This document shows, one piece after another, positions 5,557 through 51,395 of a stretch of 64,000 nt of DNA. The first letter of the stretch is position 1. Every line of letters begins with the position of its first letter. Origin of the DNA: Sulfuricella sp. (GTDB taxonomy: Bacteria > Pseudomonadota > Gammaproteobacteria > Burkholderiales > Sulfuricellaceae); NCBI GenBank assembly GCA_018336195.1, contig JAGXQV010000050.1, positions 1 to 64,000 of the forward strand, written 5' to 3'. Under the pieces are notes generated by a model. That model saw nothing but the letters and a program-made list of their open reading frames with translations. It had not been told where the DNA came from and did no database searches. The position numbers and the translations under genes are program-made.

Positions 5557-6411
5557 TCATGGCGCCAGCCGTTGGTACGCCGCCAAGCGCCGTTCGCTGA
5601 TTTTCCCTGTGGCCACCGCGTTGCGCACCGCGCAGTCCGGCTCCACCAGGTGTTTGCAGTTGGCGAAACGGCAGTCGCCGATGTAGGGGCGAAATTCCAC
5701 GAAGGCGTGGGTGATGGCGTCGCGGCTCATGTGGTGCAGGCCGAATTCCTGTAAGCCCGGCGAGTCGATGATGTGGCTGTCGGCGTCGAGGTGGTAGAGC
5801 TGGGCGTGGGTGGTGGTGTGCTTGCCGGAGTTGAGCGCTTGGGAAATTTCCCGGGTGCGTGCCTGGATGTCCGGCAGCAGGGCGTTGACGATGCTCGATT
5901 TGCCCATCCCCGATTGCCCCACCAGGACGCTGGTCTGGCCGTGCAGCCAGGGGCGCAGCGGTGCAATGTCTTGCAGGGCGGAGAGTGGCAGCAGCGGGTA
6001 GCCCAGTTCGGCGTACAGCGCGAGTTGCTGGAGGGCTTGCTGGCTGGGGTTTTCCAGGTCGCATTTGTTGAGGACGATCAGCGCTTTGATGTCGGCGGTT
6101 TCTGCGGCGATCAGGCAGCGGTTGAGAAGGTCCTCGTAAAAAGCCGGCTCGGCGGCGAGCACCACGATGATCTGGGTGACGTTGGCAGCGATGATTTTTT
6201 CGCGGAAGGCATCCGAGCGGTAGAGCAGCGAGGTGCGTGGCGCGATGGTGTCGATGATGCCCTGGCTGGCGCTGATGGACTGCACTATTACCCGGTCGCC
6301 GCACGCCACCCCACCTTTCTTGCCGCGGGTGATGCAGGGGAGGGTGGTTCCGTCCGCCAGTTCGACGAGGAACTGGCGACCGAACGCGGCGACGACCTGA
6401 CCTTCAGCCAT
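5557..6411 (-). CDS. rsgA: Ribosome small-subunit-dependent GTPase A
   Basis: 284 residues, normal for RsgA (YjeQ), the GTPase that helps mature the 30S subunit. It has an N-terminal OB-fold, then a circularly permuted GTPase: G4 N-K-C-D at 115-118 comes before the P-loop G-Q-S-G-M-G-K-S-S at 165-173, and D-S-P-G (G3) is at 216-219. The C-terminal zinc site is C247, C252, H254 and C260. Its start directly abuts the stop of the upstream cytochrome c gene, so the two are translationally linked. It converges with the FecR gene, leaving only 7 bases between stops. Confidence 0.97.
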   Translation of the reverse strand: MAEGQVVAAFGRQFLVELADGTTLPCITRGKKGGVACGDRVIVQSISASQGIIDTIAPRTSLLYRSDAFREKIIAANVTQIIVVLAAEPAFYEDLLNRCLIAAETADIKALIVLNKCDLENPSQQALQQLALYAELGYPLLPLSALQDIAPLRPWLHGQTSVLVGQSGMGKSSIVNALLPDIQARTREISQALNSGKHTTTHAQLYHLDADSHIIDSPGLQEFGLHHMSRDAITHAFVEFRPYIGDCRFANCKHLVEPDCAVRNAVATGKISERRLAAYQRLAP

Positions 6412-6723
6412 CTATTTGAACTTGTAATACTGCTGGTTGAGGTAGGCGCCGACGTGCAACTCGTCTTCCGGAAACCAGCCGGCCCCGGCGTTGCTGTTGC
6501 AGCCGCTGATTTGCGCCTGCAACTTCTGGGGAGTCTTGATCTTGCGTTCCATGCGGCTGTACATGGCGGAGCCGTCGCCGCCCAGCATCGATTTGTGGCA
6601 GGAGATGCAGGACTTGTCGTGGAGGGCTTTGCCTGCTTTGGCGTCGCCCTTGGCGAAAAGGTCGGCGGACTGAACCGGACCGGCGAGCAGCAGGAAAATG
6701 GGGAGAGCGAGCAGATGGCGCAT
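6412..6723 (-). CDS. Small monohaem c-type cytochrome
   Basis: 103 residues with a cleavable signal peptide (cleavage after Q-S-A) and one haem motif, C-I-S-C-H, so it is a periplasmic electron carrier. A methionine in the segment just after the haem site and one further down (S-A-M-Y) are possible distal ligands. The tail has a C-N-S-N-A-G-A-G-W-F-P block. It lies between an M48 protease and rsgA with 31 and 0 bases of spacing, so it is the middle gene of a three-gene minus-strand operon. Its redox partner cannot be told from the sequence. Confidence 0.9.
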   Translation of the reverse strand: MRHLLALPIFLLLAGPVQSADLFAKGDAKAGKALHDKSCISCHKSMLGGDGSAMYSRMERKIKTPQKLQAQISGCNSNAGAGWFPEDELHVGAYLNQQYYKFK

Positions 6724-6754
6724 GGTGAACTCCTTCAGGGTGAGGTGCCGAATT

Positions 6755-7996
6755 TTAGGCGATGTTGCGCAATTGCGCGATGCGCACCGAGGCCGGCGGG
6801 TGCGAATCGTAAAACGCCGAGTGCAGCGGATCGGGGGTGAGCGTGGCGGCGTTGTCGTTATACAGCTTGACCAGGGCGCTGACCAGGTCGGCGGCGGGGG
6901 CGTGGCGGGTGGCGTAGCGGTCGGCTTCGAACTCGTGCTTGCGCGAATAGAAACTCATCAGCGGTTGCAGGAGGAAGGTGAATACCGGGCTGACCAGCAG
7001 GAACAGGGTAAGACCGATTGCCGTACCCGGCGTGGCGACGCCCAGCCCAGCGAAGAACCACGGGGCTTGCATCAGCCAGCCCAGCAGCCACAGCCCGGCC
7101 AGGCTCATGGCGAAGATCAGGACGATGCGCTTGACGATGTGGCGGAGCTTGAAATGGCCGAGTTCGTGGGCGAGCACGGCGACGATTTCGTGATGCTGGA
7201 GACGCTCCAGCAGGGTATCGAAGAAAACGATCCGCCGCGATTTGCCGAAGCCGGTGAAATAGGCGTTGCCGTGGGTGCTGCGGCGCGAGCCGTCCATCAC
7301 GTAAAAGCCTTGGGCCTCGAATTGGCAGGTGGCGAGGAGCTTTTCGACGTGGGCTTTCAGTTCGGCGTCTTCGAGCGGGGCGAACTTGTTGAACAAGGGC
7401 GCGATGAAGGTCGGGTAGACGGCCAGGATCAGCAGGTTGAAACCCATCCACGCCAGCCACACGTACAACCACCAGTTTTCGCCCATCCGTGCCATTAGCC
7501 ACAGGACGCCGAGCAACAGCGGCGCGCCGATGGCGAGGCCGAGGGCGGTCTGTTTGGCGAGATCCTTGGCGTACAGCGCCGGGGTGGTCTTGTTGAAGCC
7601 GAAACGCTCGTCGATGACGAAGGTGCGGTACACGCCGAGCGGCAATTCGACGATGCCGCTGATGAAGAACACCGCGAGGATCAGCGCCACGCCTTGCCAC
7701 AAGGGATCGCTCAGCGCGCCGCCGAGCGCCTGGTTGAGCGTTTCCAACCCGCCGCCCAGGGTGAATGCCAGCAACAGCGCGGTTTCCAGGAGGGCGTGGA
7801 CGATGCCCAGGCGGGTTTTGGCGATGCTGTAATCGGCGGCTTTCTGGTGGGCGGGGAGGGTGATTTGAGCGGCGAATTCAGGCGGAACCGCTGCACGATG
7901 CGCGGCGATGTGGTTGATGTGGCGTAGTGCCAGCCACAGACGCACCGCGAGAGAAAGGGCCAGGGCAGCGAGAAAAACCAGGGTGAATGTTTGCAT
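6755..7996 (-). CDS. M48 family (Ste24/CAAX protease-like) membrane metalloprotease
   Basis: 413 residues with at least five hydrophobic segments. The zinc motif H-E-L-G-H is at 277-281 and the third ligand is in E-F-E-A-D-R near 352. The F-G-F-N-K-T-T-P block at 132-139 is typical of Ste24-type M48A proteases rather than the shorter HtpX. These enzymes cleave or quality-control membrane proteins; bacterial substrates are mostly unknown. First gene of the operon with the small cytochrome c and rsgA, divergent from orn across about 77 bases. Confidence 0.93.
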   Translation of the reverse strand: MQTFTLVFLAALALSLAVRLWLALRHINHIAAHRAAVPPEFAAQITLPAHQKAADYSIAKTRLGIVHALLETALLLAFTLGGGLETLNQALGGALSDPLWQGVALILAVFFISGIVELPLGVYRTFVIDERFGFNKTTPALYAKDLAKQTALGLAIGAPLLLGVLWLMARMGENWWLYVWLAWMGFNLLILAVYPTFIAPLFNKFAPLEDAELKAHVEKLLATCQFEAQGFYVMDGSRRSTHGNAYFTGFGKSRRIVFFDTLLERLQHHEIVAVLAHELGHFKLRHIVKRIVLIFAMSLAGLWLLGWLMQAPWFFAGLGVATPGTAIGLTLFLLVSPVFTFLLQPLMSFYSRKHEFEADRYATRHAPAADLVSALVKLYNDNAATLTPDPLHSAFYDSHPPASVRIAQLRNIA

Positions 7997-8073
7997 GAGT
8001 TTAACGGGGTATGCTTACTTCGGATGGCGGGTTATGCCAAAATGCGTAATTAACGGTTTAATAAGTGGACATT

Positions 8074-8622
8074 ATGGCACAAGACAGTAATAACCTTATC
8101 TGGATCGACCTGGAAATGACCGGCCTGGTCCCGGAGCGCGACCGGATCATCGAAATCGCCGTGGTGATGACCGATTCGCAACTCAATGTCCTGGCGGAAA
8201 GCCCGGTGCTGGTCGTGCATCAGAGCGACGAGGTGCTGAGCGGCATGGACGCCTGGAACACCTCGACCCACGGCAAGTCCGGCCTGACCGAAAAGGTGCG
8301 CGCCTCCACCCTCGACGAGGCGGAGGTCGAAAACCGTATGCTCGAATTCATCAGCCAGTACGTTCCCGCCGTCAAGTCGCCGATGTGCGGCAACTCGATC
8401 TGCCAGGACCGGCGCTTTCTCGCCAAATACATGCCCAAGCTGGAAGCGTGGTTCCACTATCGCAACCTCGATGTCAGCACACCCAAGGAACTGGCCAAGC
8501 GCTGGTATCCGAAACTCTATGACGGATTCAAGAAAGCCAACAAGCACGAAGCGCTCGCCGACATCTACGAATCCATCGAAGAGCTGAAATACTACCGCGC
8601 TACCCTGTTCCGCGAACTTTAA
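8074..8622 (+). CDS. orn: Oligoribonuclease
   Basis: 182 residues. It degrades 2-5-nt RNAs and pGpG to mononucleotides. DEDDh exonuclease residues are present: D and E in I-D-L-E-M-T-G, D in Q-D-R-R-F, and H and D in H-E-A-L-A-D-I. The ATG at 8074 gives the usual short N-terminus ([12 protein letters not shown]); an in-frame GTG at 8065 adds three residues and cannot be excluded. Because Orn removes pGpG, the product of EAL phosphodiesterases, it completes the c-di-GMP breakdown started by the EAL proteins elsewhere in the window. Confidence 0.97.
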
Positions 8623-8638
8623 CGACGGGAAAACCAGC

Positions 8639-11203
8639 ATGAATCAAGGCACGACTTTCGCGATTGAGGTCAATCCCGGACTCCCCCGCAAACTCTTGCG
8701 CTTGCAGGAACTGGCGAACAACCTCTGGTATAGCTGGGACAAACCCACCCGCACCCTGTTTGCGCGCCTCCATCCGGGGTTGTGGGATGCCGTCGGGCAC
8801 AATCCCAAGGTGTTCCTGCGCCGCGTCGACGAACAGCGCCTGCTCGATGCCAGCGACGACCAAGTGTTCCTCGCCACCTACAATCGCGTGCTGTCCGCCT
8901 ACGATACCTACCACATCGAGCCGATGCGGCGCGGCGGCATTCACGAGCAGTTCAAGCAGGACGACCTGATTGCCTATTTCTGCGCGGAATTCGGCTTTCA
9001 CGAGAGCTTCCCGGTTTATTCCGGGGGCTTGGGGATTCTTGCCGGCGATCACTGCAAGGGGGCCAGCGACCTGCGTCTGCCTTTCATCGGCGTCGGGCTG
9101 CTGTACCGCCAAGGCTATTTTTCCCAGGTCATCGACGGTGAAGGCAACCAGATCGCTACCCACAACGATTCCGACTTCGACGATCTGCCGGTCACCCCGG
9201 CGCTCGACGCGGACGGCAAGGAAATCCACGTTTACGTGGAATTTCCGGGACGCAAGGTAGCGGTCAAGGTCTGGCATTCGCGGGTCGGTCACGTTTCCCT
9301 GTGCCTGCTCGATACCGACATCGAGGAAAATTCCCCGGAAGACCGCGATATCGCCCACCAACTCTACGGCGGCGACCGAAACATGCGCATCACCCAGGAA
9401 ATCATCCTCGGCGTGGGCGGTGTGCTCGCCTTGCGTGCTCTGGGGTTGAAGCCCACTGTCTGGCACATCAACGAAGGCCACGCGGCGTTCCTGTTGCTGG
9501 AGCGCATCCGCAGTCTGATCAAGGAAGAGGGGTTGGATTTCGCCAGCGCCCTGGAAGCGACTGCGGTGAATACGGTGTTTACCACCCATACTCCGGTGCC
9601 GGCGGGCCACGATCATTTCGCCGATGACATGATGTGGTACTACTTCCAGAATTGTGCTGCCGATTTGAATATCGGGCGTTCCGATTTCCTTGCCCTCGGT
9701 CGTACCGCCGACGGGCCGGATTTCAACATGACCAACTTGGCGATTCGCGGCTCGCGTCGCCAGAACGGCGTATCGCGCATCCACGGCAGCGTTTCCTCGC
9801 AGATTTGCGCCAATCTGTGGCCGCAGATTGTTCCCGAAGAAAACCCCATGAGCTATGTCACCAACGGGGTGCACGTGCCGACTTTCCTGGCGCAGGAATG
9901 GATCGATCTGTTCGACAACTATTTCGGCTACGAATGGCGCCATCGCATGTCCGACGAGGAATACTGGACACAGCGTATCGATGAGATTCCCGATCACCTG
10001 TTCTGGAGCGTGCGCCAGTCGCTCAAGTCGCAGATGCTGCAATTAGTGCGTTACCGCCTGTCGCAGCAGCATTTCCGCAATCACGGCAGCGAAGCGCATC
10101 TCGACCGCCTGCTCAAGCACGTCGACAGCTATGACCCCAACGTGCTGACCATCGGCTTTGCCCGGCGCTTCGCCACCTACAAGCGCGCCGCGTTGCTTTT
10201 CGAAGACCCCGACACGTTGCGCCAATTGCTCTCCGACGCCGACCGTCCGGTGCTGTTCATCTTCGCCGGCAAGGCCCACCCCGCCGACCGGCCCGGTCAG
10301 GACTTGATCCGGCGCATCCACGCGCTCGCCCATATGCCCGAGTTCGAGGGTAAGGTACTGCTGGTCGAAGGCTATGACCTGGGCTTGGCGCGGCGCCTGG
10401 TGGCGGGGGTGGACGTGTGGCTCAACAACCCCATTTATCCGCTTGAAGCCAGCGGTACCTCGGGCATGAAGGCCGGTATCAACGGCGCCATCAACCTGTC
10501 GGTGCTCGACGGCTGGTGGGGGGAGGGCTACGACGGCACCAACGGCTGGGCAATCAAGCCCGCGCCGACCTATCTCGACGATGGTCGGCGCAACCGCGAG
10601 GATAGCCTGGGCTTGTACGACATCCTGCGCAACCGGGTTTTCCCCTTGTACTACGACCGCGGCAGCATGGGCTATTCGGTGGAGTGGGTGAAAAAGGCCA
10701 AACGTTCCATCGCCACCGTGCTACCCCGCTACAACTCGGGGCGAATGGTCGGCGAATACGTGTCGCGTTTCTACCTGCCAGCCTCCGAGCAGGGCAAACT
10801 CTACGCCGGTGAGGGCTACGCCAACGCGCGCCTGATTGCTGAATGGAAAGCCAAAATCCGTGGGGCGTGGCAGAACATTTCCCTGCGCCGCCTGGATACG
10901 CCGAAGAAACACATCCGTTTCGGTGACACCCTGAAATTCGAAGTGGCGGTGCGCCTCGACGGCCTGAAGCCGGAAGACGTGGAGGTGGAATTGCTGTTGC
11001 GCCGCCCTGCCAAGAAGGATCTCAGCGACTTCCTGCACTTTTCCTTTACCTGCCAGGGCATCATCCAGGAAACCGGGGAGTGCCGCTTTACCCTGGATAT
11101 GTCTCCGGAAATGTGCGGTCGCCTGGATTATAAAATCCGTATTTACCCCCATCATCCCCTGCTGACTCATCCATTGGAGATGGGGCTGATGTTGTGGCTT
11201 TGA
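8639..11203 (+). CDS. glgP: Alpha-glucan phosphorylase (GT35, DUF3417 type)
   Basis: 854 residues. It releases glucose-1-phosphate from glycogen or maltodextrin. The N-terminal ~110 residues are the DUF3417 module (N-N-L-W-Y-S-W near residue 28) that marks the bacterial/archaeal short phosphorylase branch, distinct from E. coli GlgP. The pyridoxal-phosphate lysine is K611 in G-T-S-G-M-K-A-G-I-N-G, followed by the G-W-W-G-E-G-Y block. It starts 16 bases after orn and may be read from the same transcript. Downstream is a palindrome at 11222-11239. Confidence 0.95.
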   Translation: MNQGTTFAIEVNPGLPRKLLRLQELANNLWYSWDKPTRTLFARLHPGLWDAVGHNPKVFLRRVDEQRLLDASDDQVFLATYNRVLSAYDTYHIEPMRRGGIHEQFKQDDLIAYFCAEFGFHESFPVYSGGLGILAGDHCKGASDLRLPFIGVGLLYRQGYFSQVIDGEGNQIATHNDSDFDDLPVTPALDADGKEIHVYVEFPGRKVAVKVWHSRVGHVSLCLLDTDIEENSPEDRDIAHQLYGGDRNMRITQEIILGVGGVLALRALGLKPTVWHINEGHAAFLLLERIRSLIKEEGLDFASALEATAVNTVFTTHTPVPAGHDHFADDMMWYYFQNCAADLNIGRSDFLALGRTADGPDFNMTNLAIRGSRRQNGVSRIHGSVSSQICANLWPQIVPEENPMSYVTNGVHVPTFLAQEWIDLFDNYFGYEWRHRMSDEEYWTQRIDEIPDHLFWSVRQSLKSQMLQLVRYRLSQQHFRNHGSEAHLDRLLKHVDSYDPNVLTIGFARRFATYKRAALLFEDPDTLRQLLSDADRPVLFIFAGKAHPADRPGQDLIRRIHALAHMPEFEGKVLLVEGYDLGLARRLVAGVDVWLNNPIYPLEASGTSGMKAGINGAINLSVLDGWWGEGYDGTNGWAIKPAPTYLDDGRRNREDSLGLYDILRNRVFPLYYDRGSMGYSVEWVKKAKRSIATVLPRYNSGRMVGEYVSRFYLPASEQGKLYAGEGYANARLIAEWKAKIRGAWQNISLRRLDTPKKHIRFGDTLKFEVAVRLDGLKPEDVEVELLLRRPAKKDLSDFLHFSFTCQGIIQETGECRFTLDMSPEMCGRLDYKIRIYPHHPLLTHPLEMGLMLWL

Positions 11204-11221
11204 ACCGGTACAGTGACCGGG

Positions 11222-11244
11222 ACTACGATTTTTCGTAGTAGAAT
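11222..11244 (+). promoter_or_regulatory. Palindrome overlapping a possible -10 element upstream of the 66-aa ORF
   Basis: ACTACGA (11222-11228) and TCGTAGT (11233-11239) form a perfect 7-bp inverted repeat around TTTT, and its right arm runs into TAGAAT (11239-11244), a fair -10. No good -35 lies at 17 bases. It could be an operator, a weak attenuator of glgP read-through, or both. There is no T-run after it, so it is not a standard terminator. Confidence 0.35.
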
Positions 11245-11325
11245 AATGCCGTTGGCATTGCAGGGCGTACCGTTAGCCCATGAGACCAACGCTTTTTAGG
11301 CGGTTACTTTTAGAGAAAGGCAGTT

Positions 11326-11526
11326 ATGTCGATCAATTCCGTGTCGTCCGGCAGCAGCAAGATGGTGGCCGCCTCGCCTCAACCCGAGAAAAACGAAGTG
11401 AAGCGCGCGGGACGCGAAGTCAAGGTCGATGGCGATGCCGACGACGCAAAGTCCAAGGCGTCTATCGGGCCGTCGGTTAATACCAGCGGTCAGACCATCG
11501 GTTCGATCATCAACGTCACGGCCTGA
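11326..11526 (+). CDS. Small uncharacterised protein (66 aa)
   Basis: A free-standing small gene with a plausible ribosome site (AGAAAGG, 6 bases before ATG) and its own terminator 20 bases after the stop. The product is soluble, has no signal peptide, is rich in Ser, Lys and Asp in the middle, and ends in N-T-S-G-Q-T-I-G-S-I-I-N-V-T-A. The tail looks conserved-protein-like and compact, the front looks disordered. I do not recognise a named family. It is flanked by a palindrome upstream. Confidence 0.6.
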   Translation: MSINSVSSGSSKMVAASPQPEKNEVKRAGREVKVDGDADDAKSKASIGPSVNTSGQTIGSIINVTA

Positions 11527-11546
11527 CCACTTTTTCGGGCTGATTC

Positions 11547-11584
11547 AAACAAAACGGCGAGCCGCAAGGTTCGCCGTTTTGTTT
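11547..11584 (+). terminator. Bidirectional rho-independent terminator
   Basis: A perfect 14-bp stem (11547-11560 with 11571-11584), A/T-rich at its foot on both sides, with a loop that can add a further short GCC/GGT pairing. It serves the 66-aa gene on plus and the DUF3365 gene on minus, whose stop is at 11608. Confidence 0.85.
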
Positions 11585-11607
11585 GGGGCAATTCAAGAAG
11601 CCGGGAG

Positions 11608-12186
11608 TTACAGGGCTTTCTTGAACGAAAACGCGCCGCGGATCTGGTCGAGCGTGTAGCCGGTGGCCTTGTCGTGAGGATATTCGGCTTTGAGCGTTTC
11701 CTTTACCGAGGGGTCAAGGGCGTCGCTGCCGCCATGACAGTCCAGGCAGGCACCCTGCACCGGAATGGCTTTCATGAAACGCAGGTATTTGCCTTGCGGT
11801 TCGCTCACCACTTCGGCGAATTCCAGCATTCCCGGTTTTTCCTTTTCCAGGCGTTTTTCGAAGTCCGCCAGAACCTTTTGTTCCCATGCATCCGGCGTGC
11901 CCAGTAGCGGGTTGCGGACTTTCTGCGAGACGCGGGTGATGCGTTGGCCGGTCTTGCGCGACATTTCCGAGAGCATGGCGGGCGCAATGTCCTTGCATAC
12001 TTTGATGGTGGAGGCCGGACCGTTGGCTTTCAATTCGCTTTGCAGCTTACCGCCCAACTGGGTTGCCAGTTCCTTGACGATCTTGCGGCTGTCATCCTGG
12101 AATTTCGCCAGATCATCGTCGGCAGCCGCGGCGGGGTTGAGGTTGAAAGCCAGGGTCAGTGCGAGGGGAAGCCATGCCTTTTTCAT
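11608..12186 (-). CDS. DUF3365 (Tll0287-like) periplasmic haem protein
   Basis: 192 residues with a signal peptide (A-A-A-A-D-D cleavage region) and one c-type haem motif, C-L-D-C-H, around residue 147, within the DUF3365 fold, which is found as a free haem-binding redox or gas sensor and as an input domain of kinases and cyclases. Here it stands alone. It is downstream of glgA on the same strand (71 bases between), so it could be on that transcript, although no functional link to glycogen is obvious. Confidence 0.85.
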   Translation of the reverse strand: MKKAWLPLALTLAFNLNPAAAADDDLAKFQDDSRKIVKELATQLGGKLQSELKANGPASTIKVCKDIAPAMLSEMSRKTGQRITRVSQKVRNPLLGTPDAWEQKVLADFEKRLEKEKPGMLEFAEVVSEPQGKYLRFMKAIPVQGACLDCHGGSDALDPSVKETLKAEYPHDKATGYTLDQIRGAFSFKKAL

Positions 12187-12257
12187 ATCCGATTTCTCCG
12201 GGTGGTAATAGAAAAGCCAATATTAGGGTTTTATGAAATTCCTGTAAATGATCGAAA

Positions 12258-13733
12258 TCAATCTTTCTCGGCGAGCAAGCTGCGGTACAGTTCCAGATAG
12301 CGTGTGGCGCTGGCGTCCCAGGAAAAATCCCGGTTCATGCCGGCCAACTGGATTTGCCGCCAGGTGTTGGGGTTGCGGTAGCATCCCAGGGCGCGCCGGA
12401 TGGCGTCCAGCAGTCCGGCAGCGGTATTTTCGCCGAACAGGAAGCCGCTGGCGCTTTTGTCGAGAAGGGTTTCCGGGGTAGTGTCGATCACGGTATCGAC
12501 CAGCCCGCCGGTGGCATGAACGATGGGTGGCGTGCCGTAGCGCTGGCTGTACATCTGGTTGAGGCCGCACGGCTCGAAGCGCGAGGGCATGAGAAACATG
12601 TCGATGCCGGCTTCGACGAGATGGGAAAGCTTTTCGTCGAAGCCGATGTAGGCGGCGACCTTGCCGGGGTGACTTTGCACGAGGCGGGTGAAGGATTGCT
12701 CCAGGAGGGCTTCGCCGGTGCCCAGAATGACCAGTTGCACCGGTTCTTCAAGCAGCGTCGGGACGATTTCGAGCAGCATGTCCAAGCCCTTCTGGTAGGA
12801 AATGCGGCTGACCGCGCCCAGCAGGGGGATGGCCGGGTCGACGGCGAGGCCCAGCATTTTTTGCAGGGCCGCCTTGTTGGCGGCCTTCTCGTCGAGGTTG
12901 CCTGAGCCGTAATTGCGGGCGATGTGCGGATCGGCGGCGGGGTTCCATTCGTCGTTGTCGATGCCGTTGACGATCCCGGTGAGGTCGGCGGCACGCTGTT
13001 TGAGCAGCCCCTGCATGCCGAAGCCGAGCGGTTCACGCTGGATTTCCTCGGCGTAGTTGGGGCTGACCGTGGTGATATGGGTGGCGTAATACAGCCCGGC
13101 CTTGAGGAAAGACAGGTTGCCGTAGTATTCGACCCCCTCGATCGCAAAACTTTGCGGCGGCAGGCCGACTTCGGCGACCACCGGGGGCGGGAAAATTCCT
13201 TGGAACGCCAGGTTGTGAATGGTCAGCACCGTCGGCACCTGGGGCTCTGTGGCGAAATGCAGGTAAGCGGGGGCGAGGCCGGTTTGCCAGTCGTTGCAAT
13301 GCAATAGCTTGGGACGGAATTCCAGCGGGCTGGCAGAACTGACCAGGTATGCCGCCATTCGTGAAAGCAGGGCGAAACGCAGGGCATTGTCGGGCCAATC
13401 GAGTTTCTTGGGATCCTGGTAGGGGCCGCCGCCACGGGTGTAATACTGCGGCGCCTCGATGATGAGCAAGGGGATGTCGGTGCCGGGCAGGATCGCGGAT
13501 AACAGGTGAACTTCGTCGAAACCGAAAAAATCGCCGAACCAGTACAGCGACTGGATGTTGAGTGCGCCTTCCATGACCGCCGGATAGCCGGGAACCAGAA
13601 CGCGCACGTCCACCCCCAGTTTGCGCAGGGCGGCGGGCAGCGAGGCACTAATGTCGGCGAGGCCGCCGGTCTTGATGAGCGGGCGAATTTCGGGGGTGGC
13701 GAAGAGAATCTGCAAATCGGAAGTGTTTGGCAT
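12258..13733 (-). CDS. glgA: Glycogen synthase (ADP-glucose, GT5)
   Basis: 491 residues, typical length. It adds glucosyl units from ADP-glucose to glycogen. The N-terminal K-T-G-G-L-A-D substrate loop is at about residues 21-27, and the C-terminal R-F-E-P-C-G-L-N-Q catalytic-glutamate block with H-A-T-G-G-L-V-D is intact. It is divergent from gnd across 148 bases. It works with glgC and glgB further along the window. Confidence 0.97.
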   Translation of the reverse strand: MPNTSDLQILFATPEIRPLIKTGGLADISASLPAALRKLGVDVRVLVPGYPAVMEGALNIQSLYWFGDFFGFDEVHLLSAILPGTDIPLLIIEAPQYYTRGGGPYQDPKKLDWPDNALRFALLSRMAAYLVSSASPLEFRPKLLHCNDWQTGLAPAYLHFATEPQVPTVLTIHNLAFQGIFPPPVVAEVGLPPQSFAIEGVEYYGNLSFLKAGLYYATHITTVSPNYAEEIQREPLGFGMQGLLKQRAADLTGIVNGIDNDEWNPAADPHIARNYGSGNLDEKAANKAALQKMLGLAVDPAIPLLGAVSRISYQKGLDMLLEIVPTLLEEPVQLVILGTGEALLEQSFTRLVQSHPGKVAAYIGFDEKLSHLVEAGIDMFLMPSRFEPCGLNQMYSQRYGTPPIVHATGGLVDTVIDTTPETLLDKSASGFLFGENTAAGLLDAIRRALGCYRNPNTWRQIQLAGMNRDFSWDASATRYLELYRSLLAEKD

Positions 13734-43670: not shown

Positions 43671-44399
43671 ATGAAGAAATCTACCGCGCTCGACCGCGTC
43701 CGCGTGGTCCTCAGCCACCCCTCCCACCCCGGCAACATCGGCGCGGCAGCGCGCGCCATGAAGACCATGGGGTTGAGCCGCCTGTACCTGGTCAATCCCC
43801 GCCGTTTTCCCGATCCCGAGGCTGTCACCCGCTCGTCCGGTGCGGCGGACGTGCTGGAAAACGCCACGGTATGCGGATCCCTCGAAGAAGCGCTGGGTGG
43901 AACGGTGCTGGCGGCGGCGCTCACCTCGCGCCGCCGCGACCTCTCCCTGCCGCCGCTGACGCTGCGTGAGGCCGCCCCCAAGCTGCTCGCCGAAGCGCAG
44001 GATCATGAGGTGGCTGTCGTGTTCGGTGCGGAAACCAGTGGCCTGACCAATGCCGAACTGGATTGTTGCCAGATGCTCCTGAGCATCCCCGCCAATCCCG
44101 AATACGCCTCGCTGAATCTGGCCGCAGCCGTACAAGTGGTCACCTACGAGCTGCGCACCGCCACGGCGAGCGAAGCGCCACCCACGGAAACCGGCAACCT
44201 CGCCACCCTCGAAGAAATCGAAGGCTTTTACGGGCATCTGGAAGAAGTGATGATCGCCGCCAGCTTCCTCGATCCCGCCAGCCCCAAGCGCCTCATGCAC
44301 CGCCTGCGCCGCCTGTACGCCCGCACCCGCCTGGAGCGCGAGGAAGTCAACATCCTGCGCGGCATCCTCAAATCCCTCGACCCACGCCGCAAATCCTGA
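43671..44399 (+). CDS. trmJ: tRNA (cytidine/uridine-32-2'-O)-methyltransferase
   Basis: 242 residues, SPOUT fold. N-terminal H-P-G-N-I-G-A-A-A-R-A-M and the knot motifs V-V-F-G-A-E-T-S-G-L-T-N and L-N-L-A-A-A-V-Q are intact. Methylates the 2'-OH of position 32 in tRNAs. In E. coli it lies directly before iscR; here ~6 kb of repeats and accessory genes come between. Confidence 0.95.
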   Translation: MKKSTALDRVRVVLSHPSHPGNIGAAARAMKTMGLSRLYLVNPRRFPDPEAVTRSSGAADVLENATVCGSLEEALGGTVLAAALTSRRRDLSLPPLTLREAAPKLLAEAQDHEVAVVFGAETSGLTNAELDCCQMLLSIPANPEYASLNLAAAVQVVTYELRTATASEAPPTETGNLATLEEIEGFYGHLEEVMIAASFLDPASPKRLMHRLRRLYARTRLEREEVNILRGILKSLDPRRKS

Positions 44400-44402
44400 C
44401 CA

Positions 44403-44999
44403 TGTAGGAGGGGCTTCAGCCCCGAAGCGGTGCCTACCGAAGCGGCAGTGGCTGTCGCGGCCAAGGCGCGCTCCTACGGGGAAGGCGGCATCCCAGCGCA
44501 GCCGCAAATTTTTAGGAGGAGCCTCAGCCCCGAAGCGGTGTGTGCCGAAGAGGCGGTGGTTGTCGCGGCCAAGGCACGCTCCCACGGGGTGGAGGCATCC
44601 CAGCGCAGCCGCAAATTTGTAGGAGGGGCCTCAGCCCCGAAGCGGTGTGTGCCGAAGAGACGGTGGTTATCGCGGCCAAGGCACGCTCCCACGGGGGGGG
44701 CATCCCAGCGCAGCCGCAAATTTGTAGGAGGGGCCTCGGCCCCGAAGCGGTGTATGCCGAAGAGACGGTGGTTGTCGCGGCCAAGGCACGCTCCTACGGG
44801 GAAGGCGGCATCCCAGCGCAGCCGCAAATTTGTAGGAGGGGCCTCGGCCCGAAGCGGTGTGTGCCGAAGAGGCGGTGGTTGTCGCGGCCAAGGCACGCTC
44901 CTACGGGGAAGGCGGCATCCCAGCGCAGCCGCAAATTTGTAGGAGGGGCTTCAGCCCCGAAGCGGTGCCTGCCGAAGAGGCACTGGTTGTCGCGGCCAT
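44403..44999. repeat. REP/BIME array 1: five ~107-bp units plus a partial sixth
   Basis: Units begin at 44403, 44511, 44618, 44723, 44831 and 44938 (steps 108, 107, 105, 108, 107). Each has a GTAGGAG head with a GGGGC...GCCCC hairpin, ~35 bases of linker, then an inverted second element ending in CTCCTAC, and a ~25-base spacer. Read from either end an element starts GTAG followed by a hairpin, the form of REP sequences used by RAYT transposases. The last unit loses its inverted arm at about 44999. The next 174 bases to the CHAT gene hold only a GGGCTT/AAGCCC hairpin (45037-45052) and no clear promoter. Confidence 0.85.
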
Positions 45000-45173
45000 A
45001 CCCCCAAAAGCCTGTGCACAAGAGGCGCGTTCCCACGGGCTTCCCAAAGCCCCCCGTCTGGCCTGACATTGCAGGTTAGTGCTCGCCACCCTGTTACTTC
45101 TTACAGGTATCCCCGCGCGCCGATGCCGGGTAGGATTCCCGCCTTGCAAAAAAACAACTCGGGGAGCACCGCC

Positions 45174-48100
45174 ATGACCGGACATTTCGACCTTGTCGTC
45201 ACCACCCACGAACACACTGCCGAATTTGAATTGCGCGACGGCGGCGGCAATCACCTCGCCTTCCATTCCGCCGATTTTTCGGCCATTTCGCCCAGCCGTC
45301 GGCAAAGCCTGTTCGACCTGGGCAATTACCTGCGTCTGTACGTCGAGACGCAGGACGAAGCGGCGGAAATCGCCGCAGTCGGGGTATGTATCGCCGAACA
45401 AGTGCTTGGCGAGGCTATTTTCAAGCCTCTTTGGGAGCCGCAAACCGCCCGCACCCTGCGCATCCAGTTGCCGGGTGCCGCACCCCAGGACGACTCGCTG
45501 ACCGCCTTGCTCGCCAATGTGCCGTGGGAAATCGCCCGGCCCAGCGCCGCCCAAAAAACCCTCGCCGAGCGCAATCTGCTGTTGCGCATCGTCCACGACA
45601 GCCACGCCCCCGCCGCCGAGGTGCTGCAGCTTCCGCCCGGCGAACCCTTGCGGGTGTTGTTCGTCTTCGCCGAAGCGCGCGGCTCCAACCCGCTGGGCGC
45701 ACGGCGCGAACGCCTGGAACTGCTGGACTTGTTCCGCCGCGAAATTTACCCGCAGCGCGGCATCGTTGCGCATTTCCTCACCCACGGCGTCACCCGCGAA
45801 CGCCTCAAAGAGCAGATCGCAGGGCACGGCGGCTACCACGCCGTCCATTGGAGCGGTCACGGCAACCTCAACCTGCTCGAACTCGCCAAGAGTGGCGGCG
45901 CGCGGGACAGCCTTTCCGGCGAGGCATTGCTGGCGCTGTTCATGGAGGCGGGCGGCTTCCTGCCGCGGCTGTTTTTTCTCAGCGCCTGTCATTCCGGCGA
46001 TGTCGGGCAAGTGCGCGACTGGGACGATTTCCAGGCCGTCGCGCAAGGGCGGGTTCCGGGCCGCAAAACCGCCGCGCCGCCCCGCGAAATGGATATTTCC
46101 GCACCACCCGGCTACACCGGCACCGCCCATGCCCTGCTGCAAGGCGGCGTGCCTTCGGTGGTGGCGATGCGCTACGCAGTGGGCGACGATTACGCCCGCG
46201 AACTGGCGGTGGAGTTCTACCGCGCCTTGCTCGCTCATCCCCAGCCGAAAAACCCCGCCCAGGCGCTTGCCCTGGCGCGCAAGGCGCTGCTCGACGCCGA
46301 CCGGCACGACCTCGACCGCTACGCCCCCTGCGACCACGCCACCCCCTTGCTATACGGCGCGGAATCGCCCGGCTTGGCGTTTCCCGTGGGGCGCAGCCCG
46401 GAACTCGACACCCGCAACCCGCGCCTCAACCCGGTCCCCGAACTGGGCATGGCGGAACACCGCCATTTCGTCGGGCGCACCTGGGAGCTTGCCGGGCTGG
46501 GCGCCGAATTCATCGGCACGAAAAACGCCGCGACGGTCAAGCCGGTGGCGGTCATCACCGGCCTGGGCGGGATGGGCAAAACCGCCCTCGCCGCCGAAGC
46601 TCTGGCCCTGTGGGAAAAGCGTTTCGCCTGGGTGCTGATCTATCAGGCCAAACCCAACGCCCTGTCCTTCGACGCTACGCTACGCGACATCCATACCCAA
46701 CTCAATGGCGAACTGGGCCGCTACCACGAGCACGTCCAAGCCCACCGCAGCGACGCCATCCACCGCGAAGCCGATGCCGAATTCAACGGCACAGCGCGGC
46801 AGGATAGGCTGATCCGCAACCTGCTGCGCGCCATGCAGGACGAAGCCATCCTGCTGGTGCTGGACAATTTCGAAGGCAACCTCAAAGCGCCGACTGACGG
46901 GCAAGCCGCCGCCACCTGCCAAGACCCCGCCTGGGAGCGTTGCCTGGCAGCATTGGCGGTTGGCCTGGCCGGTACGGCGTCGCGGCTGCTTATCACTTGC
47001 CGGCGCCCGTTGGCTGTGCTGGCCGATAATGTCGCCCATCCCGTCCGGCTCGGCCCGCTGCCCCCGGCGGAAGCCGCGCTTTTTTTGCGCGAACACCCCG
47101 CCCTGAGCGCCATGCTGTTCGGCGCGGACAACGGCGCAAGGGCGCTGACCTATCGCCTGCTCAACGCCAGCCGCTTCCATCCGCTGCTGATGGACAGACT
47201 GGCGCGGCTGGCGGCGGACGTAACGCTGCGCCCGCAGCTTCTGGCGGCGCTGGATACCCTGGAAACGACCGGCGATTTCGCCCACCTCCCGGAATTGTTC
47301 GCCGCCACCCCCGGCGATAAAAAGGAACTGGACTACCTCAACGACGCGCTGGCCGCCTCGCTCGACCAGCTTATCCGCAGCGCCACCCCGGATGCCCGCC
47401 GCCTGCTGTGGATGATCGCCATCGCCAACGAGCCGGTTGATCTTGAATTGCTGAACGGCGTGTGGAGCGGGGAAGACTTCCAGCAGCAGCAACTCCGCGA
47501 GATCAAGCAGATGCTGGATATCTTGCCGCAACTCCCGCCGGAGCTACAGGCAAAGTTGCAAGCCTTGCCACCCGAGGTTCACGCTCTGCTTGACGCACTG
47601 CCACCGCCAAGGCCGACGCGCCCCGACCCCGCGCCGTTATTGGCCCACCTCGTCAGCGTCGGGCTGGTCACCGCTGAGTGCCGCGCCCCGGACACCAACC
47701 CCGACCTCACCTGCCACGAACTGGTGCGCGAACGCATCCGTGACTGGATGGCACAGCACCCGCAGGACAAGGGTGACCTCAGCGCAAACTCCATCCGCCT
47801 CGCCTACGCCGAACGTCTGGAAGCGCTGTTCAATGGGATCCAGCACCGGAACCTGAGCGCCGCCCTCCAGGCGGGCAGCCGCGCCCTGGTCTATTGCGTC
47901 CAGGCTGAAGCCTGGGATCAGTTGGGCGGGTTCGCCAGCGGCGTCGTCACTGGCACCGGCGACCCGCGCCTGCTGGCGGGGCTGCTGCCCCATCTCCACG
48001 CCGCCGCCGAATCGGCGCCCGAGGGCGGGCCGCGCTGGTCTTGCCTGGGCTACCTCGCCGATGCGCTGGCGCGTGGTAGCCGTCCCGACGCCAGCCTGGC

Positions 48101-49175
48101 TTTCTACGAACAGGCCGCAACCCAGGCCCGCGCCGTCGCCGAGGCGGGGGGTGATGCCGCCCGGCTGGCGTGGGCGGGCTATGCCTGGATTGCCGGCAAC
48201 TGGGCGAATGCTCTGGCAATGACCGGTAACCTCGACGCCGCGCGCCAACGCCAACTCGACAGCGCGGCGGCCAAAAAGCAAGCCGGCAGACCTGCGGTCA
48301 ACGTCATCGCCAGCGAGTTGGAAGCCCTGCGCATCGACATCCGGCAAGGCAAGGTCGCCACGGCGTTGCCCGAGGTCGAAACGCGGCTGGCGCAGATTGC
48401 CTCCTGGTGGCAGCAGCACCGTTCCGGCGAGCACGTCGCGGAGGCACCGGACGCCGAGCTTCTCGCCCGCGCCTATATCAGCGCGCTCGACATCGCGAAA
48501 GGTGCCGACTTTGCCCGCCAGGACTGGTCTGCCGCGCTCCCCCGCATCGACATCATCCTGGAGGTCAAACGGGCGCTGAAGCGTCCGGCGCAGGACATCG
48601 CGGGTGACCGGATGAACCGCGCCAATGTGCTGACACATCTCGGGGGCTACGCCGCAGCCCAGGCCGAAATGGAAGCCTGTCTCGCGCTTTTCCAGGGGAA
48701 ACCCGATTCGTGCGCCAAGGTCTATGGCTCTCTCGCCAATCTCTTCGACGAACAAGGCGATGTGGCGCAGGCCATCACCCAAGTGCGCCGCGCCCTCGCC
48801 TTGCGCGAAGACCTGCCCGATCCCGCCGAGCGCGCCATTTCGCACCACAACCTCGCCAATTATCTGGAACGCAACGTCACCCCCTCCGACCGCGCCGAAT
48901 CACCGCGCCACCAACTCGCCGCGCTGGTTTACCGCCTCGTCGCCGGGTTGGGGCAACACCTGCAAACCTCGTTGCACAACTACGCCATCCGCTTCCGCGA
49001 CGCCCGGCAAACCGGCGGCGAACCCGCGGTGCCGCGCCTCGCCGTATTGCTCGCAGACCCGGCTTTTCACCCGCTCCAACAGTGGCTGGCGCAACGCCAG
49101 GAGGATGTGGACGAACTGCAAACCGCCGTGGACGAGCTTCTCGACCAAGCCCGTCAGGCAGCGCAGCAGCCCTAG
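45174..49175 (+). CDS. CHAT protease-like / STAND (NB-ARC-type) NTPase / TPR protein
   Basis: 1333 residues from the ATG at 45174 (GGGGAG seven bases upstream; a frame opening at 45069 is rejected for lack of a ribosome site). Residues ~140-410 are a CHAT (caspase-like) domain with the dyad His229 (W-S-G-H-G) and Cys272 (L-S-A-C-H-S-G-D). A F-V-G-R linker leads to the NTPase at ~435-760: Walker A G-L-G-G-M-G-K-T with K469 and Walker B L-L-V-L-D with D564. After a Pro/Leu-rich bridge (~780-815), residues ~950-1210 are TPR-like helices. No signal peptide or membrane segment, so cytosolic. The plan is that of STAND sensors in which TPRs bind a trigger, the NTPase oligomerises, and the CHAT cleaves a target. 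Such proteins include defence proteins, but no substrate or accessory gene is adjacent. Flanked on both sides by REP arrays. Confidence 0.85.
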   Translation: MTGHFDLVVTTHEHTAEFELRDGGGNHLAFHSADFSAISPSRRQSLFDLGNYLRLYVETQDEAAEIAAVGVCIAEQVLGEAIFKPLWEPQTARTLRIQLPGAAPQDDSLTALLANVPWEIARPSAAQKTLAERNLLLRIVHDSHAPAAEVLQLPPGEPLRVLFVFAEARGSNPLGARRERLELLDLFRREIYPQRGIVAHFLTHGVTRERLKEQIAGHGGYHAVHWSGHGNLNLLELAKSGGARDSLSGEALLALFMEAGGFLPRLFFLSACHSGDVGQVRDWDDFQAVAQGRVPGRKTAAPPREMDISAPPGYTGTAHALLQGGVPSVVAMRYAVGDDYARELAVEFYRALLAHPQPKNPAQALALARKALLDADRHDLDRYAPCDHATPLLYGAESPGLAFPVGRSPELDTRNPRLNPVPELGMAEHRHFVGRTWELAGLGAEFIGTKNAATVKPVAVITGLGGMGKTALAAEALALWEKRFAWVLIYQAKPNALSFDATLRDIHTQLNGELGRYHEHVQAHRSDAIHREADAEFNGTARQDRLIRNLLRAMQDEAILLVLDNFEGNLKAPTDGQAAATCQDPAWERCLAALAVGLAGTASRLLITCRRPLAVLADNVAHPVRLGPLPPAEAALFLREHPALSAMLFGADNGARALTYRLLNASRFHPLLMDRLARLAADVTLRPQLLAALDTLETTGDFAHLPELFAATPGDKKELDYLNDALAASLDQLIRSATPDARRLLWMIAIANEPVDLELLNGVWSGEDFQQQQLREIKQMLDILPQLPPELQAKLQALPPEVHALLDALPPPRPTRPDPAPLLAHLVSVGLVTAECRAPDTNPDLTCHELVRERIRDWMAQHPQDKGDLSANSIRLAYAERLEALFNGIQHRNLSAALQAGSRALVYCVQAEAWDQLGGFASGVVTGTGDPRLLAGLLPHLHAAAESAPEGGPRWSCLGYLADALARGSRPDASLAFYEQAATQARAVAEAGGDAARLAWAGYAWIAGNWANALAMTGNLDAARQRQLDSAAAKKQAGRPAVNVIASELEALRIDIRQGKVATALPEVETRLAQIASWWQQHRSGEHVAEAPDAELLARAYISALDIAKGADFARQDWSAALPRIDIILEVKRALKRPAQDIAGDRMNRANVLTHLGGYAAAQAEMEACLALFQGKPDSCAKVYGSLANLFDEQGDVAQAITQVRRALALREDLPDPAERAISHHNLANYLERNVTPSDRAESPRHQLAALVYRLVAGLGQHLQTSLHNYAIRFRDARQTGGEPAVPRLAVLLADPAFHPLQQWLAQRQEDVDELQTAVDELLDQARQAAQQP

Positions 49176-49177
49176 CT

Positions 49178-50007
49178 CGTAGGAGGGGGCTTGCCCCCGA
49201 TAGCGGTGCGCACCGAAGCTGCGGCTGTCGCGGCCAAGGCGCGCTCCTACGGGGGAAGGCGGCGTCCGGGCACAACCGCAAATTGTGTAGGAGGGGCTTC
49301 AGCCCCGATAGCGGTGTGTACCGAAGCTGCGGCGGTCGCGGCCAAGGCACGCTCCTACGGGGGCGGTGGCATTCCGGCACAACCGCACATTGTGTAGGGG
49401 GGGCTTCAGCCCCGATAGCGGTGTGTACCGAAGCTGCGGCGGTCGCGGCCAAGGCGCGCTCCTACGGGGGCGGTGGCATTCCGGCATGGCCGCACATTGT
49501 GTAGGAGGGGCCTCGGCCCCGATAGCGGTGTGTACCGAAGCTGCGGCGGTCGCGGCCAAGGCACGCTCCTACGGGGGCGGTGGCATTCCGGCACAACCGC
49601 ACATTGTGTAGGGGGGGCTTCAGCCCCGATAGCGGTGTGTACCGAAGCTGCGGCGGTCGCGGCCAAGGCGCGCTCCTACGGGGGCGGTGGCATTCCGGCA
49701 TGGCCGCACATTGTGTAGGAGGGGCCTCGGCCCCGATAGCGGTGTGTACCGAAGCTGCGGCGGTCGCGGCCAAGGCACGCTCCTACGGGGGCGGTGGCAT
49801 TCCGGCATAGCCGCACATTGTGTAGGAGGGGCTTCAGCCCCGATAGCGGTGCGCACCGAAGCTGCGGCGGTCGCGGCGAAGGCGCGCTCCTACGGGGGCG
49901 GTGGCATCCCGGCACAACCGCACATTGTGTAGGAGGGGCTTCAGCCCCGATAGCGGTGTAGGCCGAAGCGGCAGTGGCTGTCGCGGCCAAGGCACGCTCC
50001 TACGGGG
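49178..50007. repeat. REP/BIME array 2: eight tandem 107-bp units
   Basis: Units start at 49178, 49286, 49393, 49500, 49607, 49714, 49821 and 49928, at an almost exact 107-base period. Each has GTAGGAG or GTAGGGG plus the GGGGC...GCCCC hairpin, then GATAGCGG (array 1 has GAAGCGG), a linker, and an inverted arm ending CTCCTAC. The unit at 49393 equals that at 49607 and 49500 nearly equals 49714, so a two-unit block has been duplicated. The array starts 2 bases after the CHAT stop and ends 8 bases from the RAYT stop. It covers the whole gap; no gene is in it. Confidence 0.88.
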
Positions 50008-50015
50008 AAGGTGGC

Positions 50016-50477
50016 TCAGAGCCAAACCGCATCCCAATGCGGATAATCGCCGATTCGTTTGACCAATCCGGCGCGCAATGGGTTGGCGACGATGTAACGG
50101 GCGACAGCTTGCAGGTCTTCTTCGCGGCGTAGGGCGCGGTCGTGAAATCCCGCTTGCCATGTCGGGGCACCGGGGGTGTTGCGGGTTGCGTTGAGCCAGC
50201 GGCTGCTGGTGGATTTGAAACGTTTGACGGCGTCGGACAATTCCCCGTTTGTCAATTCGAACAGCCAGTGCAGGTGGTCGGGCATGAGGACGTAGCTGAG
50301 CGTTTGCGTTTCGCCGGTCGCATCGCATTCGTGCAGGGCGCGAACCATCAGGCGGGCCAGGATGAAATCGGTGAAAAGCGGTTTGCGCCGGGGTGTGGCG
50401 GTGGTGATGAGATAAACGCGCCCGGTTTCGGAAAACCGTCCGATGCGCAGATTGGCGGCGTGGGGCATGGGATGCAT
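50016..50477 (-). CDS. REP-associated tyrosine transposase (RAYT, Y1/HUH family)
   Basis: 153 residues, IS200-like fold. The HUH-type metal motif is P-D-H-L-H with H68 and H70, and the probable nucleophile is Y128 in A-R-Y-I-V-A-N-P-L-R-A-G-L. The H-D-R-A-L-R block before it is typical of RAYTs. These single-copy proteins nick and join single-stranded REP hairpins with a GTAG foot and do not form ordinary insertion sequences. The gene is enclosed by matching REPs: array 2 on its 3' side and a solo REP at 50502 on its 5' side. Confidence 0.9.
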   Translation of the reverse strand: MHPMPHAANLRIGRFSETGRVYLITTATPRRKPLFTDFILARLMVRALHECDATGETQTLSYVLMPDHLHWLFELTNGELSDAVKRFKSTSSRWLNATRNTPGAPTWQAGFHDRALRREEDLQAVARYIVANPLRAGLVKRIGDYPHWDAVWL

Positions 50478-50501
50478 GGTAAAGGAATTGAGGTGCTGCG
50501 G

Positions 50502-50563
50502 GTAGGAGGGGCTTCAGCCCCGAAGCGGTGCCTGCCGAAGCTATGGCTGTCGCGGCCAAGGTC
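50502..50563. repeat. Solo REP/BIME remnant upstream of the RAYT gene
   Basis: GTAGGAG, the GGGGCTTCAGCCCC hairpin, GAAGCGGTGCCTGCCGAAG and the start of the inverted arm (CGCGGCCAAGG), but the closing CTCCTAC is lost. Its linker matches the last unit of array 1 rather than array 2. It is 24 bases before the RAYT start and 18 bases before the cysE promoter. Confidence 0.8.
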
Positions 50564-50580
50564 GCTCAACTCAAAAATAA

Positions 50581-50642: not shown

Positions 50643-51395
50643 GTGTTCAACCATCTCCGCGAAGACATTTCCGTCGTATTCGACCGCGACCCGGCGGCGC
50701 GCTCCACCTGGGAGGTATTGACCACCTATCCGGGGGTTCATGCCCTGCTGATCTACCGGTTGTCGCGCCGCTTGTGGGGATGGGAACTGAAATGGCTGGC
50801 GCGTTTCCTGTCCTTCCTGGGGCGCTGGTTCACCGGCATTGAAATCCATCCGGGTGCGACCATCGGGCGGCGTTTTTTCATCGATCACGGGATGGGCGTG
50901 GTGATCGGCGAAACCGCCGAAATCGGCGATGACTGTACGCTATATCACGGCGTCACCCTGGGCGGCACCTCGTGGAACAAGGGCAAGCGCCATCCCACCC
51001 TGGAAGCGGGGGTGGTGATCGGCGCCGGCGCGAAAGTCCTGGGTCCGATCACCATCGGCGAAGGAGCGAAAATCGGCTCCAATGCGGTGGTGGTCAAAAA
51101 TGTCCCGGCGGGCGCCACCGCGGTCGGCATTCCGGCGCGTATCCTCGACGGTGGCAAGGCTCAGCAGCGCGAAAGCCACGCCCAGAAACTGGGGTTTTCC
51201 GCGTATGCAATGAGCGACGACATGAACGATCCCATCGTCAAAGCCATTCACGCCATGCTCGACCACGCTTCGGCAACCGACCGGCGCATCGCCATTGTCC
51301 TCGAACAACTCAAGAAATGCGGCATCGACATCGAGCAGGACGCCGCCGTGGCGGACGCCTTCGACGTGAATTACCTGAATAAGATAGTTGACTAA
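50643..51395 (+). CDS. cysE: Serine O-acetyltransferase
   Basis: 250 residues from a GTG at 50643. An N-terminal helical domain is followed by a left-handed beta helix of hexapeptide repeats, with [12 protein letters not shown] and H-G-V-T-L-G-G-T. It makes O-acetylserine for cysteine synthesis and so supplies the cysteine used by the desulfurases encoded next. The stop overlaps the IscR box. Confidence 0.96.

What the first reader, a model, noticed from the sequence alone, without database searches (positions are those of the whole stretch)
45174..49175. Lone CHAT-STAND-TPR gene as a candidate cell-suicide or defence switch
Seen: an intact caspase-like His229/Cys272 dyad, an intact Walker A and B, and TPR-like helices in one cytosolic chain. 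Known: CHAT, STAND NTPase and TPR modules occur together in bacterial surveillance proteins (including phage-defence STANDs and CHAT effectors that cut gasdermins or other targets). Inferred: the TPRs sense a trigger and the CHAT cuts a protein. No gasdermin, nuclease or target gene is adjacent, so either the substrate is a housekeeping protein or it is encoded elsewhere. It is the best lead in the window for an undescribed system.
Basis: partly seen in the sequence, partly recalled or inferred. Interest (0 to 1): 0.8.

Follow-up and report, generated by a model that had tools for sequence, protein, structure and literature searches.

The report
NLR-like caspase switch, hydrolase partner lost
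This bacterial gene encodes one protein that joins a caspase-like protease to an immune-receptor-type molecular switch and a sensor; in relatives from three other phyla the next gene is an alpha/beta hydrolase, so the protease probably works with that enzyme, which this genome no longer has.

Summary
45174-49175(+) encodes a 1333-aa CHAT–STAND–TPR protein with H229/C272, Walker A K469 and Walker B intact. The predicted CHAT fold matches SAVED-CHAT, separase and Craspase TPR-CHAT (Z 19-21).

(1) The family is rare but spread over several bacterial groups, mostly at 58-79% identity. In three homologous loci (Lysobacteraceae, Methylomirabilota, Planctomycetota MAGs) the next gene on the same strand is a DUF900 alpha/beta hydrolase, 61-75% identical between loci, overlapping by 4 bp in one. 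A CHAT–DUF900 fusion exists in a Nostoc VMAP locus. Caspase–hydrolase pairing is already described in other conflict systems (PMC7159879). (2) The window gene has lost it: no hydrolase in this genome, and a REP array starts 4 bp after the stop. The gene lies in a REP/RAYT block inserted between trmJ and cysE, adjacent in all 14 family genomes found.

Best reading: a new variant of NLR-like conflict protein, a sensor-gated protease acting with the hydrolase; here an orphan under purifying selection. Defence function is inferred, untested.

The parts
45174..49175 (+). CHAT-STAND (NB-ARC-like)-TPR gene, 1333 aa (P0001)
45609..46388 (+). CHAT protease core (residues 146-405); H229 codon 45858-45860, C272 codon 45987-45989
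   Evidence: Pfam CHAT 1.2e-17; caspase/separase fold Z about 20; dyad invariant in homologues
45174..45608 (+). N-terminal CHAT subdomain (residues 1-145), with the PWE motif 117-119
   Evidence: The model aligns with separase and Craspase from residue 1; conserved in homologues
46461..47093 (+). STAND NTPase (residues 430-640); Walker A 46560-46583 (K469), Walker B 46848-46874
   Evidence: AAA_16 above cut-off; motifs invariant
47094..47783 (+). Helical and winged-helix part of the STAND module (residues 641-870) with MHD-like CHELVRER, H848 codon 47715-47717
   Evidence: sequence motif, H848 invariant; helical in model
47979..49172 (+). C-terminal TPR superhelix (residues about 936-1333), presumed sensor
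   Evidence: TPR_12; model helices 510-912, LGN TPR Z about 24; STAND-TPR structure 6mfv is best Foldseek hit
44403..44998 (+). Upstream tandem array, 5.6 copies of a 107-bp GTAG-type REP unit
49179..50015 (+). Downstream tandem array, 7.8 copies of the related 107-bp REP unit, starting 4 bp after the stop where homologues carry the hydrolase gene
50016..50477 (-). RAYT-like Y1 transposase (153 aa)
   Evidence: Pfam Y1_Tnp 4e-11
50502..50570 (+). Single REP copy at the outer edge of the inserted block
43671..44399 (+). Flank: trmJ (SpoU methylase), adjacent to cysE in all 14 family genomes found
50643..51395 (+). Flank: cysE, followed by iscR

Best explanation
The protein is an NLR-like, sensor-gated caspase switch. 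Shown: one chain with an intact CHAT protease, an intact STAND P-loop ATPase with an MHD-like winged helix, and a TPR superhelix; conserved and under purifying selection; in three homologous loci followed directly by a DUF900 alpha/beta hydrolase. Inferred: at rest the ADP-bound STAND module holds the CHAT domain inactive. The TPR superhelix binds a trigger (phage or other invader product, or a damaged host component), nucleotide exchange drives oligomerisation, and the CHAT dyad becomes active. In the complete two-gene form the protease acts on the partner hydrolase, most likely by cutting the variable linker (residues about 52-98) between its conserved N-terminal helical segment and its catalytic domain. 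This would release or unleash an esterase or lipase that damages the cell and stops the invader. In this genome the hydrolase gene has been lost and the locus is a REP/RAYT-bounded orphan, which either cuts another substrate or keeps only the protease limb.
For: Domains and motifs. Dyad and Walker motifs in all six sequences covering them. CHAT fold Z 18-21 to SAVED-CHAT, separase and Craspase TPR-CHAT. STAND-TPR structure 6mfv is top Foldseek hit for the rest. Pairwise dN/dS 0.22-0.25. Hydrolase directly downstream in L025 (ATGA overlap), L042 (18-bp gap) and L041 (430-bp gap), 61-75% identical. These three lie on both sides of the window in the tree, so the ancestor probably had the pair. 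CHAT-DUF900 fusion in a Nostoc VMAP locus and CHAT genes beside DUF900 on Hymenobacter and Sulfitobacter plasmids. Published: a neighbouring alpha/beta hydrolase always accompanies the caspase domain in VMAP systems (PMC7159879); CHAT proteases act on paired proteins such as Csx30 (PMC10028731) and a fungal gasdermin (PMC12881547).
Against: The hydrolase is absent from this genome and from the Gammaproteobacteria G234 bin, so the protein must also persist without it. In L041 the two genes are 430 bp apart. No cleavage site is known. The TPR sensor is not clearly more variable than the rest (55-70% against 63-70%, close homologues), unlike an arms-race sensor. No defence-island context in the window, no PADLOC model hit, no viral, phage or plasmid relatives. 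All homologues are MAG contigs, several broken within the gene.
Confidence: 0.55

Rival explanations
1. Self-sufficient protease switch: the protein kills or arrests the cell by cutting a housekeeping or distant substrate, and the hydrolase in some loci is an optional add-on.
For: Window and G234 lineages keep a conserved protein without any hydrolase found in the genome; the window branch is not longer than its sister (0.29 against 0.36). CHAT protease defence without a hydrolase (Borvo) is listed in PMC10952713.
Against: The hydrolase is the only recurrent neighbour, in three phyla, with one translational overlap and fusion elsewhere.
Confidence: 0.25
2. Regulatory or developmental proteolysis rather than defence: the protein is a signalling protease that responds to an internal cue.
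For: The TPR region is about as conserved as the rest. The top Foldseek hit of the CHAT model is the anti-sigma factor DdvA (8rot), and Csx29 acts partly by releasing a sigma factor (PMC10028731).
Against: Patchy, cross-phylum, insertion-borne distribution and the CHAT/DUF900 link to conflict systems fit an accessory conflict gene better than a core regulator.
Confidence: 0.13
3. Decaying orphan: after loss of the hydrolase the gene has no function and persists briefly in a REP/RAYT block.
For: Hydrolase missing, REP array directly after the stop. The Methylomirabilota copy has an in-frame TAG, although its hydrolase is present, and the Desulfobacteraceae copy is frame-broken.
Against: 1333 codons open, all catalytic motifs intact, low dN/dS and no long branch for the window copy.
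Confidence: 0.07

Closest known systems
Caspase-alpha/beta-hydrolase pairing in MoxR-vWA (VMAP) and GAP1 conflict systems (Kaur et al. 2020, PMC7159879)
   Same: A caspase-superfamily domain accompanied by an alpha/beta hydrolase; the Nostoc CHAT-DUF900 protein in a VMAP locus is the nearest plasmid relative of the hydrolase found (46%).
   Different: Here the switch is a STAND NTPase with TPRs in the same chain. No MoxR, vWA or VMAP gene was seen in the window or among the neighbours inspected.
Craspase TPR-CHAT (Csx29) of type III-E CRISPR
   Same: CHAT fold and His-Cys dyad with the same 43-residue spacing (Z about 19); TPR-linked, allosterically gated protease with a substrate encoded in the same locus.
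   Different: TPR is N-terminal and CHAT C-terminal there; no STAND NTPase; activated by gRAMP and target RNA, absent here.
SAVED-CHAT / CalpL-type proteases
   Same: Closest CHAT core by structure (Z 20.7, rmsd 2.6, 194 residues).
   Different: Sensor is SAVED (cyclic oligoadenylate); no SAVED domain here.
NLR-like STAND proteins (Avs/AVAST, NB-ARC/AP-ATPase-TPR)
   Same: N-terminal effector, central STAND NTPase, C-terminal helical repeat sensor; Walker A/B and MHD-like histidine; best structural hit 6mfv STAND-TPR.
   Different: Effector is a CHAT protease; no PADLOC model matched; Pfam NB-ARC is below its cut-off, AAA_16 above.
CHAT-gasdermin gene pairs (bacteria and fungi)
   Same: Sensor-bearing CHAT protease next to a putative membrane-damaging effector (PMC12881547).
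   Different: The partner is an alpha/beta hydrolase, not a gasdermin.

Membership tests
CHAT protease (PF12770) | Profile match above the gathering score | tested here: met
   64.8 bits against 24
CHAT protease (PF12770) | His-Cys dyad at the ends of two strands of a caspase fold | tested here: met
   H229 and C272 at strand ends, invariant in the six sequences covering the site, Z 18-21 to CHAT/separase structures; distance not measured
CHAT protease (PF12770) | Proteolytic activity | not testable with these tools
   needs purified protein
STAND NTPase (AP-ATPase/NB-ARC-like) | Walker A and B and winged helix with MHD-like His | tested here: met
   GLGGMGKT, ILLVLDNFE, CHELVRER; K469, D564, H848 invariant
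STAND NTPase (AP-ATPase/NB-ARC-like) | Pfam NB-ARC above its curated cut-off | tested here: not met
   13.6 bits against 23.5; AAA_16 is above cut-off, hence called NB-ARC-like only
Avs/AVAST or another PADLOC system | Match to a PADLOC model | tested here: not met
   only a TPR model at E 0.024
Craspase (type III-E) | TPR-CHAT order and gRAMP/Cas7-11 neighbour | tested here: not met
   CHAT is N-terminal; neighbours are trmJ, a Y1 transposase and cysE
SAVED-CHAT | SAVED sensor domain | tested here: not met
   Pfam and PADLOC scans of P0001 show none
CHAT-gasdermin pair | Adjacent gasdermin gene | tested here: not met
   Adjacent genes identified as trmJ, Y1_Tnp, cysE; no genome-wide gasdermin search was made
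Caspase-alpha/beta-hydrolase VMAP ternary system | Neighbouring alpha/beta hydrolase | tested here: inconclusive
   Met in three homologous loci; absent next to the window gene and from its genome
Caspase-alpha/beta-hydrolase VMAP ternary system | MoxR ATPase and vWA/VMAP components | tested here: not met
   None adjacent in the window, and none recognised beside L025, L041 or L042 in the stretches read; these neighbours were mostly named by inspection, not by profile

The most novel reading that the evidence does not exclude
A distinct two-gene conflict system, 'CHAT-STAND-TPR plus DUF900 hydrolase', in which an NLR-like caspase directly activates a dedicated hydrolase. It is spread among at least three phyla by horizontal transfer, and in the window lineage the protease limb persists alone inside a REP/RAYT-bounded insertion.
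Probability: 0.4. Interest if true: 0.75.

Novelty: new variant of a known kind. Interest (0 to 1): 0.57.

Why it matters
If true, it turns a substrate-less CHAT-STAND gene into a testable protease-substrate pair. An NLR-like receptor with its own caspase would switch on an alpha/beta hydrolase, a bacterial parallel of the apoptosome or inflammasome with sensor, switch and caspase in one chain. It would also test what the recurring caspase-alpha/beta-hydrolase pairing in bacterial conflict systems is for, a question left open when the pairing was described. The rare, cross-phylum distribution and the orphan copy here give natural with- and without-partner comparisons.

Tried and rejected
PADLOC and NCBIfam profiles: no meaningful match. 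phmmer and profile search of PDB sequences: only TPRs or noise, so fold comparison was needed. The single-sequence GTDB scan failed; the two-sequence alignment worked. No relatives in IMG/VR contigs, phages or plasmids; none for the hydrolase in IMG/VR. No relative at 1e-10 in 60 kin genomes. Surveys of Acidobacteriota and Planctomycetota found only the seed genomes, but these and the class survey scored only two candidates per genome, so rarity is an impression and the counts are lower bounds. PF05990 search of the own genome had no positive control, so I relied on the hydrolase protein search, which found its target in three other genomes. A weak tblastn hit of the hydrolase downstream of the G234 copy (30 bits, no motif, stop inside) was judged chance. 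The Hymenobacter CHAT protein next to a DUF900 gene is TPR-CHAT and not an orthologue. Idea that the TPR sensor diversifies fast: not supported. Idea that REP/RAYT mobilised the gene: possible but untested; the REP arrays could have grown around an already inserted gene.
Full report
OBSERVATION. The open frame at 45174-49175(+) encodes 1333 aa without a stop. Pfam finds CHAT (1.2e-17), AAA_16 (7e-10) and TPR_12 (6e-8), all above their curated cut-offs. The ATG at 45174 is the likely start, because homologues begin at the same residue.

FAMILY. No relative was found in 60 kin genomes. A 369-genome class sample gave only one strong relative, G234, in two fragments, plus a weak N-terminal fragment in G092. 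A GTDB scan with a two-sequence alignment found relatives labelled Gammaproteobacteria (the same locus as in G234), Lysobacteraceae, Methylomirabilota, Kouleothrix (Chloroflexota), Acidobacteria, Desulfobacteraceae and Planctomycetota. Apart from the Desulfobacteraceae copy (about 42%), pairwise identities are 58-79% across these groups. All are MAGs and several contigs break inside the gene, so taxon labels may be wrong, but the sequences differ enough to be separate species. H229, C272, Walker A and B are kept in all six sequences that cover them. H848 in CHELVRER, which resembles the MHD motif of NB-ARC proteins, is also invariant. Pairwise dN/dS is 0.22-0.25 (NG86, dS near 1, so rough).

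STRUCTURE. The AlphaFold2 model of residues 1-430 (six sequences, mean pLDDT 70, pTM 0.73) has H229 at the end of strand 223-231 and C272 at the end of strand 266-273. VIA-align gives Z 20.7 to SAVED-CHAT, 20.0 to separase and 19.2 to Craspase TPR-CHAT. The H-C spacing of 43 equals that of Csx29 H615/C658, shown by mutation to be catalytic (PMC10028731). The geometry is therefore supported by fold and position, not by a measured distance. The model of residues 422-1333 (mean pLDDT 79, pTM 0.56) has a STAND part and a long TPR superhelix. Its top Foldseek hit is 6mfv, a STAND protein with a TPR sensor, and VIA-align gives Z about 24 to LGN-type TPRs.

THE PARTNER. In L025 (Lysobacteraceae) the gene's TGA overlaps the ATG of a 423-aa DUF900 alpha/beta hydrolase (PF05990, 3e-42). 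The Methylomirabilota and Planctomycetota bins, once the contigs with the gene's 3' end were found, have the same hydrolase 18 bp and 430 bp downstream. The three hydrolases are 61-75% identical, with a conserved AHSMGN nucleophile elbow, a conserved N-terminal helical-looking segment (about 1-51) and a variable linker (about 52-98). No upstream gene recurred in the loci I read. Among plasmid records the nearest relative is a CHAT-DUF900 fusion in a Nostoc VMAP/AAA-ATPase locus (46%), followed by a Hymenobacter hydrolase with a CHAT gene beside it. A Sulfitobacter DUF900 gene has a caspase gene and a CHAT gene beside it, while four other plasmid DUF900 genes looked at (H4, H7, H16, H19) have no annotated CHAT neighbour. 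Kaur et al. report that a neighbouring alpha/beta hydrolase always accompanies the caspase domain in VMAP systems, and infer that the two work together (PMC7159879). A search of the held library for 'DUF900' with 'caspase' gave no paper.

THE WINDOW COPY. A hydrolase search over this genome, with positive results in three others as control, found none, and no remnant is seen downstream. A 107-bp GTAG-type REP array starts 4 bp after the stop. The whole block 44403 to about 50575 (REP array, gene, REP array, RAYT-like Y1 transposase, single REP) lies between trmJ and cysE. In all 14 same-family genomes whose cysE locus was retrieved, including the same-genus G001, the two genes are adjacent with tens of base pairs between them, and the native cysE upstream sequence resumes after the block. 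So this is an acquired insertion. The tree places hydrolase-bearing copies on both sides of the window copy, its sister being the Lysobacteraceae copy (support 0.94), so loss here is more economical than repeated gain. The window branch is not longer than its sister's.

MECHANISM AND LIMITS. I commit to a sensor-gated caspase that in complete loci acts on the hydrolase. Shown: domains, motifs, fold, conservation, neighbourhood. Inferred: autoinhibition, trigger, oligomerisation, cleavage of the hydrolase, membrane or cell damage, defence. The TPR region is about as conserved as the rest, so the trigger may be conserved rather than fast-evolving. Defence is the likeliest context, from the CHAT/DUF900 link to conflict systems and the patchy distribution, but there is no defence island here, no PADLOC match and no phage data.

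VERDICT. A new variant of a known kind. The gene is real and intact. The 'undescribed system' claim is narrowed to a protease-hydrolase gene pair whose parts are known, and the window itself holds only the protease half.

Noticed in passing
44403-50575: Two tandem arrays of a 107-bp GTAG-type REP unit (5.6 and 7.8 copies), a RAYT-like Y1 transposase and a single REP bound the CHAT gene between trmJ and cysE; 13 of the 19 REP-core matches in the genome are here. Whether RAYT moved the gene or the REPs came later is open.
   Followed up: partly
L019 (G000:C118), 4129-11418: Second CHAT-TPR protein of 1441 aa in the same genome, 27% alike to P0001 over CHAT-STAND, followed by a peptidoglycan-binding and papain-like C1 protease gene, a possible protease pair.
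   Followed up: partly
L021 (G000:C53), 3943-9504: 1853-aa CHAT-SIR2-NB-ARC-TPR-FGE-sulfatase protein with a ThsA-type PADLOC hit: another STAND conflict protein in the same genome.
   Followed up: partly
L020 (G000:C171), 140-6218: CHAT protein near a PP2C phosphatase and a Ser/Thr kinase-FHA gene.
   Followed up: no
L046 (Nostoc sp. HK-01 plasmid, AP018319.1), 6050-13411: CHAT and DUF900 fused in one 646-aa protein in a locus with VMAP, AAA ATPase and FGE-sulfatase proteins.
   Followed up: partly
L030, 2143-2616: Truncated HsdM N-terminus directly upstream of, and overlapping the start of, the Planctomycetota copy: a type I restriction context or an insertion into hsdM.
   Followed up: no
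L026 codon 665; L029 near residue 1142: The Methylomirabilota copy has an in-frame TAG and the Desulfobacteraceae copy a break near the TPRs: pseudogenes or MAG errors.
   Followed up: no
L017 5978-6131 (G234:C353): The G234 copy is broken near residue 698 by an 11-bp tandem repeat with stops, at a contig end; an N-terminal part is on another contig.
   Followed up: no
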